From Hoplostethus atlanticus (lineage: Eukaryota; Chordata; Actinopteri; Trachichthyiformes; Trachichthyidae), in assembly GCA_034670405.1 (NCBI GenBank), contig JAXDDX010000005.1, forward strand, positions 524,501-588,500: a stretch of DNA of 64,000 bases, in the 5' to 3' direction. A program made the translations under genes and the position numbers. The notes beneath the pieces are model-generated. The model was not told where the DNA came from and searched no databases. It was given only the letters and a program-made list of their open reading frames with translations. This document shows positions 33,437 to 37,557 of the stretch, piece after piece (the stretch's first letter is position 1; the number at the start of each line of letters is the position of its first letter).

Positions 33437-33444
33437 GGTTTGAG

Positions 33445-33490
33445 CAGTGGCGGCTGGTGCATTTTTCTCCGGGGGGGGCTATACCAAAAA
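33445..33490 (+). repeat. left terminal inverted repeat of the hAT-type element
   Basis: CAGTGGCGGCTGGTGC followed by a G8 run. Pairs with the inverted CAATGGCGGCTGG at the far end (37,537-37,549). Confidence 0.8.
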
Positions 33491-33877
33491 TCAAGCAAAC
33501 ATGTACTAAGGTATCATCAGTGTATTTAAATAAATGAAAAGGCCTTTATTTGTATTTGCTGAGCTGTAAAACATTTAACTGTAAAGTAACATGACAGGGA
33601 ATCAGGTGTGGGCTGCTGATGAAAATGCATTCTCATCATCTTGCAGATGCCTCCTTGTTTTTGAAAAGGTCTGCAGTGGAAGCTTCTCTGCTTTGGTAGC
33701 CAATGGATCAGCCCCAAAACAAGACTCTATTTCTGTAGGCAATATTGAGTTTTGTTCCAAAATGACAAATGACATTAAAACAAAACAAAGAATAGCAGAT
33801 CCCTTGGTTTATACAAATACACTTGTACAGATAGAATCCACAATGTTTTAGTTTAAATGTATTTAGTTTAAATACAT

Positions 33878-33883
33878 TTATTT
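33878..33883 (-). terminator. poly(A) signal AATAAA for the captured gene
   Basis: AATAAA on the minus strand, 24 nt past the TGA stop of the gene's last frame. That gives an unusually short 3' UTR. A second AATAAA (33,545-33,550) near the left terminus would give a more usual 3' UTR of about 360 nt. Confidence 0.5.
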
Positions 33884-33907
33884 GAACATGACAATAAGCA
33901 GAATGAT

Positions 33908-34444
33908 TCAAGTACGATTTTCATTAGAAGATTTGCTGTTCTTCTTTCGCCTGAAGAGACGGAAGAGCCAAGAGAAGCAGCCAGAATTCTTCCTCTCTTT
34001 CTTTGGTTTTGAAGTGGTGATCTCAACGTTGGAGCAGTCAGGTCCTGCAGGGTCGAGTGCTTGGACGAAGTCTCCCTCCTCCTGTGCAGTGATACTGCTG
34101 TCAGGCCCAGCACAGAGCAAAGTAGTGACGTTGTTTTTCTCATCATACTCAGGATTGGCATCTTCATGGACACTTGTGGCACTTTCATCAATTGGATCAC
34201 TGGCAGAAAACATGACTTTGTCTTCCTTGAGGACCACATGGTCTTGGCCCTCTTCCTCTTTTTCCAAGAGGAACTGTATTGAGTCAGAATCTGCTGTGAC
34301 GACTGGCTCCCATGTATCAAGCTGGTTTATATACGGCCCACAGGGTGAAGAGCAGTCAACCAAAAATCCAGATACATCAGATGAAGGCGCATAGAAGTAC
34401 TTTTCACCAAGTACATTCTTGCAGTATTCATACACGTAGGTCTT
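33908..34444 (-). CDS. C-terminal frame of the captured gene
   Basis: Open frame of about 178 codons from just after a TAG at 34,447-34,445 to TGA at 33,910-33,908. It starts YEYCKNVLGEKYFYAPSSD, which is a diverged third copy of the upstream 35-residue repeat (Tyr-x-Tyr-Ala-Pro...Cys), and repeats a WEPVV motif matching WEPAV upstream. A long acidic segment follows (residues with EKEEEGQD, DESATSVHEDANPEYDE). The last 35 residues turn strongly basic, with KPKKERK and LFRRKKNSK around a hydrophobic CFSWLF, which could be a membrane-associating or nuclear signal. The switch from the preceding frame is either a frameshift mutation or a missed intron. Confidence 0.6.
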   Translation of the reverse strand, partial: KTYVYEYCKNVLGEKYFYAPSSDVSGFLVDCSSPCGPYINQLDTWEPVVTADSDSIQFLLEKEEEGQDHVVLKEDKVMFSASDPIDESATSVHEDANPEYDEKNNVTTLLCAGPDSSITAQEEGDFVQALDPAGPDCSNVEITTSKPKKERKNSGCFSWLFRLFRRKKNSKSSNENRT

Positions 34445-35763
34445 CTAGGTCACCAATGAAGGATTGCTGCAGCAGCCTCCCAATGAGCTCTATGGTCCCA
34501 CTGGTTTGCGCCATGCTGAGTGAAGCCTCAGCATCTCTGAGCAGGTTGGATGGACTCTCGGCGTCCTGGGCTGGATGGCTGCTTGGTTCAGCATTTCCTG
34601 AAGTCTCGTCCTTAGCTACGAGAGGTACGTCTTCCTCTGTGCTGACTGCTGGTTCCCAGATGACTCTCAGACTCTCAAGTCCACAGGTAGATCTGGAGCC
34701 TACGGTCGGCTGAGAAAATGGGGACAGGGCACAGTTGAGCTCAACAGCGTATTCAGAGATAGAGGCTGGAGCGTAAGCGTATCGTCCCTCCCAAAGGTCT
34801 TCAGCTGAGGTGGGCTGAGCAAATGGAGACAGGGCACAGTTGAGCTCAACAGCGTATCCAGAGATAGAGGCTGGAGTGTAACCATATGGTCTCTCTCCAT
34901 GGTCGTTGGCTGGGATGCTGGGTGCCACATAACCGGGGTCCGACAGACAGAGACATAGGCAGGGGAGAGTTAAATGGCCAGCACGGCCGTTTTATTCACA
35001 CAATAAACCCAGCCCGGTGTTGACGGCAGTTGGCGCCGTCTTCCCCGGCGCTGACGGCAGTGTAGAGCGCCGTCTTCCCCGGCACGCGCCTCCTCCCTCC
35101 CGGCAGGTCAGCCACGGAGCACCAAGGCTGCCCCAGCCTGCCAGGCTTCCAGGGGCATCCCGCCCCAACCCTGACTGGTCAGCCCTTGCAGGCTGCTACC
35201 GACTGCAACCTCCGGAGCTCGGCCGGCTTTGGACACCCGCTCTCCCACTCCGTCGTTCGCCGCTCGCACCCTCGCCTCCGTCCCGGCACTTCAGCCGCGG
35301 ACCCCGCTCAGACGCGGCTTCTGCTGGCTCGTCTCTCCCCAGACAGTCCGGCTCGACTCCTCCGTCTCCTGCCGAACTCCACTCGCTCTGCCAGCCTCTC
35401 ACACTGGCGCGCTCTCACACAGTCCCACATCCACACACAGGTTAAAAAGGGCCCGGCTGCAATCAGGCCCAATTGGCTGCAGCCGGTTAAGTCTCGCCCC
35501 ACCCTCCTCCCATCTGCCACAATCACCTTTGAGGGCGTTGAGGCGAATGGCTTGATCCATCCACGCTGAAAGAAGTGAGACAAGGTATGTCAGCATGTTA
35601 GCAAAAACATAGGCTGACAGAGAGTTTCAGTTCTAAAACATTTATCTTCATCTTTTATCACACAAAGACAACTAACCAGACAGTAAAGGAACTGGCTGGC
35701 AAGAATGTTTTAGGATAGTAGATCAAGTAGATTTGTCTTACCTGGACAGAAATTCTCCTCCAT
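33908..35763 (-). CDS. captured spliced gene with 35-residue repeats, unrecognised
   Basis: Assembled from four minus-strand pieces inside the hAT-type unit: exon A (35,763-35,742), exon B (35,565-35,527), a repeat-bearing frame (34,928-34,448) and a C-terminal frame (34,444-33,908). Exons A and B join in phase to give MEENFCPAWMDQAIRLNAL and end in phase 1 (K + G). The repeat frame can be entered in matching phase at an acceptor ending at 34,910 (G|CC, Ala). Alternatively, exon B may once have run straight into it (GGT TAT GTG) before the LTR-like block was inserted. The predicted protein has about 370 residues with no signal peptide seen: an N-terminal amphipathic segment, tandem Tyr/Pro/Cys repeats, WEP motifs, an acidic Ser/Thr-rich middle and a basic C-terminus with WLFRLFRRKK. 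No enzymatic motif was recognised. A frame break at about 34,440 suggests it may now be a pseudogene. Confidence 0.55.
34428..34928 (-). CDS. repeat-bearing frame of the captured gene
   Basis: A 167-codon frame. Two near-identical 35-residue units stand in tandem, starting YGYTPASISGYAVELNC and YAYAPASISEYAVELNC. The DNA of the two copies (about 34,813-34,888 and 34,708-34,783, offset exactly 105 bp) is also nearly identical, so the duplication is recent. Downstream are LRVIWEPAVSTEEDVPLV and a Ser/Ala-rich region with two DAE motifs (AQDAESPSN, LRDAEASLS). The frame ends at TGA (34,430-34,428) just after EDLRV, while the biologically sensible continuation (VYEYCKN) lies one frame over. Confidence 0.6.
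   Translation of the reverse strand: MAPSIPANDHGERPYGYTPASISGYAVELNCALSPFAQPTSAEDLWEGRYAYAPASISEYAVELNCALSPFSQPTVGSRSTCGLESLRVIWEPAVSTEEDVPLVAKDETSGNAEPSSHPAQDAESPSNLLRDAEASLSMAQTSGTIELIGRLLQQSFIGDLEDLRV
34930..35521 (-). mobile_element. GC-rich solo-LTR-like block inside the captured gene
   Basis: On the minus strand it starts TGTGGCAGATGGGAGG and carries a CCAAT box (CAGCCAATTGGGCC). A TATA-like CTTTTTAACC follows (35,441-35,450), then about 400 bp of CpG-rich leader with a duplicated segment (35,022-35,049 and 35,052-35,083: GACGGCAGT...GCGCCGTCTTCCCCGGC). AATAAA (34,991-34,996) and a pyrimidine-rich end near 34,935 close it. This order (U3 promoter, R, poly(A), U5) is that of a retroelement LTR of about 590 bp. 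A TGGCACCC word resembling a lysine-tRNA primer site abuts the end, but no gag or pol follows, and a clean CA end and TSD were not found. It may instead be a CpG-island intron. Confidence 0.45.
35022..35083. repeat. GC-rich direct duplication
   Basis: Two copies of a roughly 28-bp unit containing GACGGCAGT and GCGCCGTCTTCCCCGGC, separated by a few bases. Confidence 0.8.
35527..35565 (-). CDS. exon B of the captured gene
   Basis: A strong acceptor (CTCACTTCTTTCAG) is followed by 39 nt coding for (A)WMDQAIRLNALK, ending at AAAG|GTGATT. The codon split with exon A resolves to GCG (Ala). The donor is weak, so this may once have been a longer exon cut by the neighbouring LTR-like block: reading on gives KGD and then a stop-free run into LTR-like DNA. 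Confidence 0.55.
35742..35763 (-). CDS. exon A (start exon) of the captured gene
   Basis: ATGGAGGAGAATTTCTGTCC then AG|GTAAGAC. The codons give MEENFCP plus one base. A perfect donor follows, and the intron (35,741-35,566, 176 nt) is of typical fish size. The matching phase with exon B supports both. Confidence 0.55.
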
Positions 35764-36854
35764 AATTGCTTTTGTTAAATGAATGAAATTGTAACGGTTT
35801 GCTAACTAAGACAATGAAATCGCTGTTTCTTTCAGGTTGGTAGAGTGAAGTCTGAAGCTCTGAGTTTCATCTGGTGCCCAATGTGTCTCTCAGAATGTCA
35901 TGATGTCACAGCCAATCTGAGCTCTGTGGCCTCGGCACACATTTCATCACACCCAGAGTCACATGGTCACTAATGAATAAATAAAAATACTAATAGATCA
36001 AAATAATCCCTAATAGAAAATGAGGGAAGCAAATATCAACAAAAAAGAAACTAACAATACTAGCTGCTTTATTTTCTGCAGAACTCACCACCATGTCCAT
36101 GACTGCTCATCCATGAGCATTAAGAATCTCTTTTTGTCTGTAAAAGGTGATCACACACTGCCCATCCAAAGCCCCCCAGGCTGCTGCCATTATGCTTGAC
36201 CTTCCTTGGAGTCACACAGTCTCGTACTCTAAACATAAGAGACAACATAGACAACAGAACAGATTAGTTATAGTGCATACATACAACATGGGTCTGGGCG
36301 GAGAGGCTGACTTAGATTTCATAATCACAATTCTGCAATCCAAATTTCAGTCAAAAGTAAAATTAAAGAGATTCAAAATTTTGTATTCACATTGCATCAT
36401 AAACTTGTGCAACACTGAGAGCTGTTTACTCCGTCTGGCTCTCAGACAACCACCCCACCAACTTGTATAATGAATGAACATTTGTTGTAATGAAACGTGC
36501 TTAAGGTAAGTTAAGGTACTTCAATTAGTGCAAATTCTTTATAATAATTATCTTTTATACTACAGTATGTAATGGTGAAAGACTAAAGTAACCGAAAAGT
36601 GCCTCGATAAGTGCAACAGAAATCTGACAACACAAAACCCTGAGACAATGGCAGAAAATTATGAACACAATAAGACCTAATAGAAAATAACATTTAAGAA
36701 AAAAATAAATGAATATGGTATTACATTTGAAATACCCAGTGCCATCAAAACGCTGAGTGAACTGGCTCAAAGATATATGACTTTGCCACCTTGTGGCTTA
36801 AACTTTTTATACATAAATTTTGCCCTTCTCTCCTTGAGAGATGCAGATTTCTCA
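35764..36854. other. internal non-coding part of the hAT-type element
   Basis: AT-rich DNA between the transposase remnant and exon A. It holds the promoter module at 35,898-35,919. No further transposase motif is recognisable. Confidence 0.45.
35898..35919 (-). promoter_or_regulatory. NF-Y plus CRE-like module upstream of exon A
   Basis: On the minus strand GATTGGC (inverted CCAAT) and TGACATCA (CRE/ATF-like) are spaced by 2-3 bp, about 140 bp upstream of the start codon of exon A. Such a pair is a usual proximal-promoter arrangement. It suggests the gene was captured with its own promoter. Confidence 0.4.
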
Positions 36855-37220
36855 ATGACTCTATGGCACCACAGAACTTGACACAGTTTATTATTTTAGA
36901 CAGGATGTGCCTGTTTTTGTCAACCTCTTTATGCTTACAGATCCCTGTCCTGTAGCCTTCATCAAGCTGAGCAGCTATGTTTACTTTCCCAAACATTTGC
37001 TTTTGTTTTTTCTGATATGTGGTTTAAATCATTCAAACCTGTCTGAATCCATGCTGGGTCTGAGACCTGTCGTTTGAACAAGGATGCAGGGAAAGCAAAA
37101 TAAAGCATTGGTGTCACTACATGCAGTTAGCCAAGCCTTCCTACTAAACCAGCTCCTTGAAAACGACCGAGTATATTGTCTCATTCTGGCGCATTTTATG
37201 TCAGATGTACCACGAGCCAC
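36855..37220 (-). pseudogene. hAT transposase N-terminal remnant (TTF-type zinc finger)
   Basis: Minus strand. The first frame reads RSFSRSWFSRKAWLTACS and then ALFCFPCILVQ, the signature of the TTF-type zinc finger in ZMYM1-like hAT transposases (Trp-Phe...Trp-Leu...FCFPC). A shifted frame gives GLNDLNHISEKTKA (canonical 'G-x-x-D-L-x-H-L-S-E'). A further shift gives AAQLDEGYRTGI, NRHILSKIINCVKFCGA, the conserved linker before the catalytic domain. At least two frame changes, and a deletion between finger and linker, make it non-functional. The DDE/RNase H-like core and the C-terminal hATC dimerisation domain are absent from the element. Confidence 0.7.
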
Positions 37221-37557
37221 TCGCTCTCTGCTGCCAACCAGTGGTTGGAGCTCCTATCTCTTGTATTGAGAGGAGTGAACTGCGCATGTACAATTTATAA
37301 CGAGAGTCAATGGGCAAAGATTTTTGCGCCCCAGGCTGGAAATACGTGACCTAGCAGTAACTTTAGACAACGTAGAACAATTTAAATCTTTCATCATTTT
37401 ATTGCAGATTATACATTTTACTCACTAACTATATAATATTTACCTCGCTCATTTAAAACAAAAAAATTCAAAGTAATTTTTAATGAAGTCTAGGATGTGG
37501 GGAGTGGTGGGGCGGCGCCCTAGCTCCCTCTATTGGCCAGCCGCCATTGGGTTTGAG

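What the first reader, a model, noticed from the sequence alone, without database searches (positions are those of the whole stretch)
33437..37557. A hAT-type transposon that appears to have captured an intron-containing gene
Seen: 13-bp inverted termini, a perfect 8-bp duplication GGTTTGAG on both flanks, and a decayed TTF-type hAT transposase N-terminus (FCFPC, then NRHILSKIINCVKFCGA) inside the right end. Where the transposase catalytic core should lie there is instead a minus-strand gene with two phase-matched small exons, a repeat-bearing frame, a basic C-terminus and a poly(A) signal. Because that gene has introns it is not a retrocopy. Known: plant MULE, CACTA and hAT elements capture gene pieces (Pack-type elements); clear vertebrate cases with intron-containing cargo are rarely discussed. 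Inference: transposase-dependent mobilisation of this gene, possibly several copies per genome.
Basis: partly seen in the sequence, partly recalled or inferred. Interest (0 to 1): 0.9.

Follow-up and report, generated by a model that had tools for sequence, protein, structure and literature searches.

The report
Fish jumping DNA spreading whole gene
A family of cut-and-paste jumping DNA in this (probably fish) genome carries inside it what looks like a small complete gene with an intron, and has copied it to dozens, probably hundreds, of places; carrying a gene is known for such elements, but this scale would be unusual in a vertebrate.

Summary
Window 33445-37549 is one copy of a non-autonomous hAT family. 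Its left 1 kb has 40 scored matches (window included) of 731 first-look candidates. Of 15 copies with both ends, 10 have exact, all different 8-bp duplications and 3 have 7/8; none of 210 cross-copy controls exceeds 6/8.

The cargo reads as a gene in the consensus: start exon, short GT-AG intron, 366 codons with stop, two 35-aa repeats, poly(A) signal. Four of 21 copies keep the frame open end to end. The window copy is dead (private 604-bp insertion, frameshift). The transposase remnant is TTF-type hAT, already broken in the consensus.

All 20 copies fetched with a query that includes cargo carry cargo; the one copy read that was found by the right end alone, L040, lacks it, so cargo-free members exist.

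Mobilisation of the cargo is well supported. Capture from the host is inferred: no parental gene, autonomous partner or protein homologue was found, and the genome search was mostly unreachable. Changes in the frame look neutral.

Closest known: Pack-hAT / Pack-TIR elements; multicopy animal cases are rare. An alternative left end on some copies stays unexplained.

The parts
33437..33444 (.). left 8-bp target-site duplication GGTTTGAG
37550..37557 (.). right 8-bp target-site duplication GGTTTGAG
33445..37549 (-). whole element (gene and transposase remnant read on the minus strand); family consensus of 14 copies is 3514 bp, this copy carries a private insertion
33445..33457 (+). left terminal inverted repeat CAGTGGCGGCTGG
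37537..37549 (-). right terminal inverted repeat (CAATGGCGGCTGG here; CAGTGGCGG... in 12 of 15 copies with both ends)
33445..33576 (+). hAT left end proper; replaced by another sequence in the variant-B copies, whose shared part with this element begins at consensus ~130-133
33877..33882 (-). poly(A) signal AATAAA after the cargo stop codon
   Evidence: motif kept in 14 of 14 aligned copies
33908..35565 (-). terminal coding exon of the cargo (interrupted here by 34918-35521 and by a frameshift near 34440)
34704..34913 (-). two tandem 105-bp (35-aa) repeats inside the coding exon; number varies between copies
34918..35521 (-). private insertion, G+C-rich, LTR-like (TGTGGCA at both edges); absent from this place in the 18 of 20 fetched copies that keep both sides of it
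35566..35741 (-). intron, GTAAGA...TTTCAG
   Evidence: exact start exon + donor in 11 of 14 aligned copies
35742..35763 (-). start exon ATGGAGGAGAATTTCTGTCCAG
36745..37253 (-). decayed TTF-type hAT transposase N-terminus in broken frames; stops after ...ILSKIINCVKFCGA, catalytic core absent

Best explanation
A non-autonomous hAT (Pack-type) family. A TTF-type hAT lost its transposase core and came to hold a complete gene-like unit of unknown origin: start exon, short intron, frame of 366 codons with the stop, and poly(A) signal, most likely a captured host gene taken as genomic DNA. A transposase made elsewhere then moved the unit by cut and paste to dozens, probably hundreds, of sites, each marked by its own 8-bp duplication. 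Shown: the common ends, the different duplications, the cargo in the copies fetched by it, an open frame in a few, and one cargo-free member. Inferred: host origin of the cargo, trans-mobilisation, any expression, the hundreds. The window copy itself cannot make the protein.
For:: 40 scored matches to the left 1 kb (window included), 91-100% identical, of 731 first-look candidates; all 20 fetched copies hold cargo sequence, 19 of 20 including the repeat region (the query itself spans part of the cargo); 15 copies with both ends, octamers 8/8 in 10, 7/8 in 3; controls at most 6/8 in 210; consensus of 14 copies, one 378-aa stop-free stretch; the longest in 300 first-order Markov sequences is 188 aa (median 106); start exon plus donor exact in 11 of 14; frame open from splice acceptor to native C-terminus in L013, L015, L017, L020, L021, L024 (6 of 21), of which L013, L015, L020, L024 also have the exact start exon and donor (L024 is shorter by an in-frame deletion); the remnant matches TTF-type/DUF4371 hAT proteins (20 of 23 candidates at E <= 0.001); nearly star-like tree, median end branch 0.016, i.e. 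a recent burst. L040 has both ends and no cargo, so the cargo is separable from the element.
Against: No parental gene was found. No homologue: none of 2277 word-sharing candidates at E <= 0.001; nothing better than E 0.26 in the PDB; none in viral contigs; Pfam only below its cut-offs. No autonomous element with these ends was found; the searches for one did not complete. Substitutions give no sign of selection on the protein. L040 can be a deletion derivative as well as a pre-capture form. A minority of copies with another left end does not fit a simple one-unit history. The intron rests on sequence signals alone, and an unspliced start (MLTYLV...) inside it would also open the frame.
Confidence: 0.62

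Rival explanations
1. The cargo is not a capture but an old accessory gene of this hAT lineage, present in its autonomous members too; the copies seen are deletion derivatives, most of which kept it.
For: Every copy fetched by the left 1 kb has cargo sequence (20 of 20), though that query includes part of the cargo; no host homologue.
Against: L040, the one copy read that was found by the right end alone, has both ends and no cargo start exon or splice acceptor. The unit has its own start exon, intron and poly(A) signal. The left hAT end stops at a sharp inner edge about 130 bp in, which some copies lack. Shared changes show no clear purifying selection (36 N, 18 S, 1 stop of 55; expected N/S 2.61, observed 2.0).
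Confidence: 0.2
2. The copies with the other left end (variant B) are the parental gene family, and the A elements took the gene from it.
For: B-left is rare (45 first-look candidates for 239 bp) against 731 for the A left 1 kb (a longer query); B copies form tandem arrays on C25 and C201, as gene clusters do.
Against: L030 and L033 (B) have the hAT right end; B copies do not form one group in the cargo tree (6 changes for 6 rows, at least 5 forced, bootstrap not settled); B-left has a sharp outer edge at dispersed loci, unlike a gene's flank.
Confidence: 0.08
3. The cargo is a piece of another transposon or of a virus of unknown kind, not a host gene.
For: No homologue in any library searched.
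Against: Spliced gene layout with short intron and poly(A) signal; no viral-contig relative; no polymerase, integrase or capsid match in Pfam.
Confidence: 0.08

Closest known systems
Multicopy Pack-TIRs of vertebrates, e.g. Pack-hAT-N8_XT in western clawed frog (Tan et al. 2021, PMC8277862; abstract, passages and section 9 seen)
   Same: Non-autonomous hAT ends around captured sequence, several copies with distinct target duplications.
   Different: There: 291 bp of a 5' UTR (CAPSL), three copies, parent known; four multicopy cases in the reference genomes surveyed. Here: a whole reading frame with an intron, dozens of copies shown, parent unknown.
Ssk-FB4 in Drosophila melanogaster (same paper, section 9)
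   Same: Nearly complete gene with upstream sequence (all but ~200 bp of 3' UTR) carried by a TIR element and transposed again.
   Different: FB4 is assigned there to the MULE type; four copies; parent gene Ssk known; the abstract reports support from proteomics.
Histone H3-carrying hAT of Pseudocercospora fijiensis (Dhillon et al. 2019, PMC6710886; abstract and section 7 read)
   Same: hAT element amplified a gene to hundreds of copies.
   Different: Fungus; the H3 copies look like an intronless transcript copy and were inactivated by RIP. Here an intron is present and a few frames are open.
Pack-hAT of plants (PMC8903248; start of abstract in a listing, and passages)
   Same: hAT-type Pack elements that carry captured coding DNA.
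   Different: Plant elements (the passages concern maize); the captured genes are known there and their expression is discussed.

Membership tests
hAT superfamily | 8-bp target-site duplication (feature recalled) | tested here: met
   8/8 in 10 of 15, 7/8 in 3 of 15, control at most 6/8 in 210
hAT superfamily | short terminal inverted repeats, CAGNG-like start (feature recalled) | tested here: met
   CAGTGGCGG or a 1-base variant at both ends of most copies with both ends
hAT superfamily | hAT transposase with catalytic core and C-terminal dimerisation domain (feature recalled) | tested here: not met
   only a broken TTF-type N-terminus is present; this bars 'autonomous hAT', not 'non-autonomous hAT'
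Pack-type element (Pack-hAT / Pack-TIR) | TIR element without its own intact transposase | tested here: met
Pack-type element (Pack-hAT / Pack-TIR) | carries sequence that is not of transposon origin | tested here: inconclusive
   gene-like cargo with no library match above threshold
Pack-type element (Pack-hAT / Pack-TIR) | parental copy of the cargo elsewhere without the ends | tested here: inconclusive
   candidate B copies found but not a clean parent; cargo-protein genome searches did not complete
Retrocopy cargo | spliced, intronless | tested here: not met
   GT-AG gap between start exon and frame kept; start exon plus donor exact in 11 of 14 copies

The most novel reading that the evidence does not exclude
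A vertebrate hAT family has turned a complete intron-bearing gene into a mobile gene family of hundreds of copies, a few of them able to make the protein, and reshuffles it between two different left ends by recombination between copies.
Probability: 0.3. Interest if true: 0.78.

Novelty: new variant of a known kind. Interest (0 to 1): 0.6.

Why it matters
About a third of rice Pack-MULEs are multicopy, but the one survey of animal genomes read here found only four multicopy cases (PMC8277862). A family with a whole spliced gene in dozens to hundreds of copies, still about 98% like their consensus, would let one test in a vertebrate whether such copies are transcribed, spliced and kept, and how capture and re-shuffling happen.

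Tried and rejected
Rejected: termini by chance. A chance reading frame. A single-copy oddity. A spliced retrocopy. L035 as an autonomous partner: its left flank holds another hAT transposase (DUF4371 E 9.8e-9) with no matching left end or duplication, so I read it as a rearranged or nested locus.

Led nowhere: weak Pfam matches CLAMP PF14769 (E 0.013 and 0.018) and Peroxidase_ext (E 0.022 and 0.017), both under their cut-offs. Protein homologues of the cargo. PDB. Viral contigs. Rfam.

Selection test (window plus 20 fetched copies): single-copy changes N 138, S 44, stop 3 of 185; shared changes N 36, S 18, stop 1 of 55; expected N/S about 2.6; read as neutral. In that script the attempt to leave out the window's insertion failed, so that row was aligned with it. 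L027 is partial.

Sampling limit: the 20 copies were chosen from a query that spans part of the cargo, so 'all carry cargo' is partly by selection. L040, chosen by the right end, has none; it was the only such copy read.

Literature: searches in the held open library listed no title or abstract start that describes a vertebrate hAT family with a complete gene in many copies; subscription papers are not held, so absence from print is not shown. No structure was predicted: the window's own frame is broken, and the tool's list of permitted sources does not name loci from genome searches.

Full report
What is there. The window is G000:C5:524501-588500 of an unnamed 632.8-Mb genome in 1161 contigs; a teleost is likely (inference; the named best-scoring relative of the transposase remnant is from the fish Pagothenia borchgrevinki). 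The element at 33445-37549 has inverted ends CAGTGGCGGCTGG / CCAGCCGCCATTG and GGTTTGAG on both sides.

It is a family. The left 1 kb as a query gave 40 scored matches (window included), 91-100% identical, out of 731 first-look candidates; the right 850 bp gave 804 candidates, of which 40 were scored (67 matching pieces). The tool states that such counts are lower bounds; first-look candidates are not confirmed copies, so 'hundreds' is inference. I fetched 20 copies from the list. Both ends were found in 14 of them and in the window; 6 of 20 had no right end by BLAST. Flanking octamers agree 8/8 in 10 of 15, 7/8 in 3, 6/8 in L021 and 2/8 in L023; in 210 cross-copy controls the best is 6/8; all 15 left octamers differ. 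This is transposition with the cargo on board.

The cargo. All 20 fetched copies hold cargo sequence; 19 include the repeat region, while L027 is a 1284-bp internal deletion derivative. The query spans about 870 bp of cargo, so this is partly by selection. L040, returned by the right-end search, has a left end at 1152 and a right end at 2374, with left-end sequence joined to sequence matching the window from about 36470 on, and no cargo; a reversed right half (277-1151) lies against it. Whether it is a deletion derivative or a pre-capture form is open.

A majority consensus of 14 copies (13 fetched plus the window; L027 was left out as too short, and the 6 without a right end were not used) is 3514 bp and has one long frame, on the minus strand. 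Read as a gene it has a start exon ATGGAGGAGAATTTCTGTCCAG^GTAAGA, a short intron ending CTTTCAG, and a terminal exon, giving 366 codons with the stop (MEENFCPAWMDQV...NANRT), two 35-aa repeats and a basic C-terminus GCFSWLFRLFRRKKN, then AATAAA. Start exon and donor are exact in 11 of 14 copies. Stop-free length 378 aa compares with at most 188 aa in 300 Markov sequences.

Six of 21 copies (window plus 20) keep the frame from acceptor to native end (L013, L015, L017, L020, L021, L024), and four of them also keep the exact start exon and donor (L013, L015, L020, L024; L024 with an in-frame deletion) (L020 was missed by the pattern and is taken). Of the 9 further loci tested (L029-L036, L043), five reach the native end (L030, L031, L034, L035, L043), one of them (L043) with the exact start exon. 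The window copy is broken by a private insertion (34918-35521) and a frameshift.

The transposase remnant. In the consensus it lies in three broken frames and ends after ...NRHILSKIINCVKFCGA. Read with X at the breaks, it matched 20 proteins at E <= 0.001 among 23 candidates, the best-scoring 51% identical to a Pagothenia TTF-type protein; 9 of 20 carry DUF4371; a pairwise check gave 56% over 117 columns. Pfam itself gave no match to the remnant.

Age and selection. The tree of 14 copies is nearly a star (3 of 11 inner branches well supported), with median end branch 0.016. Changes in the frame fit neutrality: single-copy N/S 3.14 against 2.62 expected, shared 2.0 against 2.61. The sample is small; weak selection is not excluded.

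What the cargo is. Unknown. No protein relative at E <= 0.001 (the make-up of that library for fish is unclear), nothing better than E 0.26 in the PDB, none in viral contigs, only sub-threshold Pfam matches. A genome search with the cargo protein did not complete; even if answered, it would probably be flooded by element copies.

A second left end. Some matches start at position 130-163. L029, L031, L032, L033, L034, L042 and L043 share, instead of the hAT left end, about 215 bp with a sharp outer edge at (C)TGATCCTAAATC (edge partly altered in L029; extension shortened in L032), and L030 shares part of it. This sequence is rare (45 first-look candidates for 239 bp, 40 scored, many of them short pieces). 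L030 and L033 end in the hAT right terminus; L033 has TTTGTCTG / TTTGCCTG if the left edge is ATCCTAA, one case chosen after looking. Tandem copies occur on C25 and C201. In the cargo tree (28 rows, bootstrap not settled) the six B rows fall in six places, at least five forced by supported branches, no more clustered than shuffled labels. So left ends and cargo types have been re-assorted, by recombination between copies or by some route I cannot name. This is the least understood part. L035 and L036 have lost the left end in other ways.

Comparison. It works like a Pack-type element. It meets the structural tests of a non-autonomous hAT; the test that defines capture, a parental copy, is open. 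Against what I saw in print: animal multicopy Pack-TIRs are few (PMC8277862), Ssk-FB4 is a near-whole gene in four copies (same paper), and the fungal H3 hAT is high-copy but intronless (PMC6710886). The combination of high copy number and a whole intron-bearing frame in a vertebrate is what is new here, if capture is confirmed.

Noticed in passing
window 34918-35521: G+C-rich insertion private to this copy with TGTGGCA at both edges, LTR-like; no clean target duplication, and about 20 bp of the exon seen in other copies are missing at its edge; partial relatives lie in L010 and L026.
   Followed up: partly
L029, L031, L032, L033, L034, L042, L043: Alternative left end of about 215 bp with a sharp edge at (C)TGATCCTAAATC, scattered through the cargo tree.
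   Followed up: partly
L040 277-2374 (C157): Cargo-free family member (1152-2374) with a reversed right half (277-1151) directly against its left end.
   Followed up: partly
L031 (C25) and L032 (C201): Tandem arrays of cargo units; in L031 both units continue into the same ~340-bp sequence not found in L029-L036 otherwise.
   Followed up: partly
L035/L037 (C113:1496400-1506500): A different DUF4371 hAT transposase beside a cargo copy that has lost its left end.
   Followed up: partly
window 34704-34913 and family copies: The 105-bp coding repeat varies in number between copies; L015 has an extra unit and L017 fewer.
   Followed up: no
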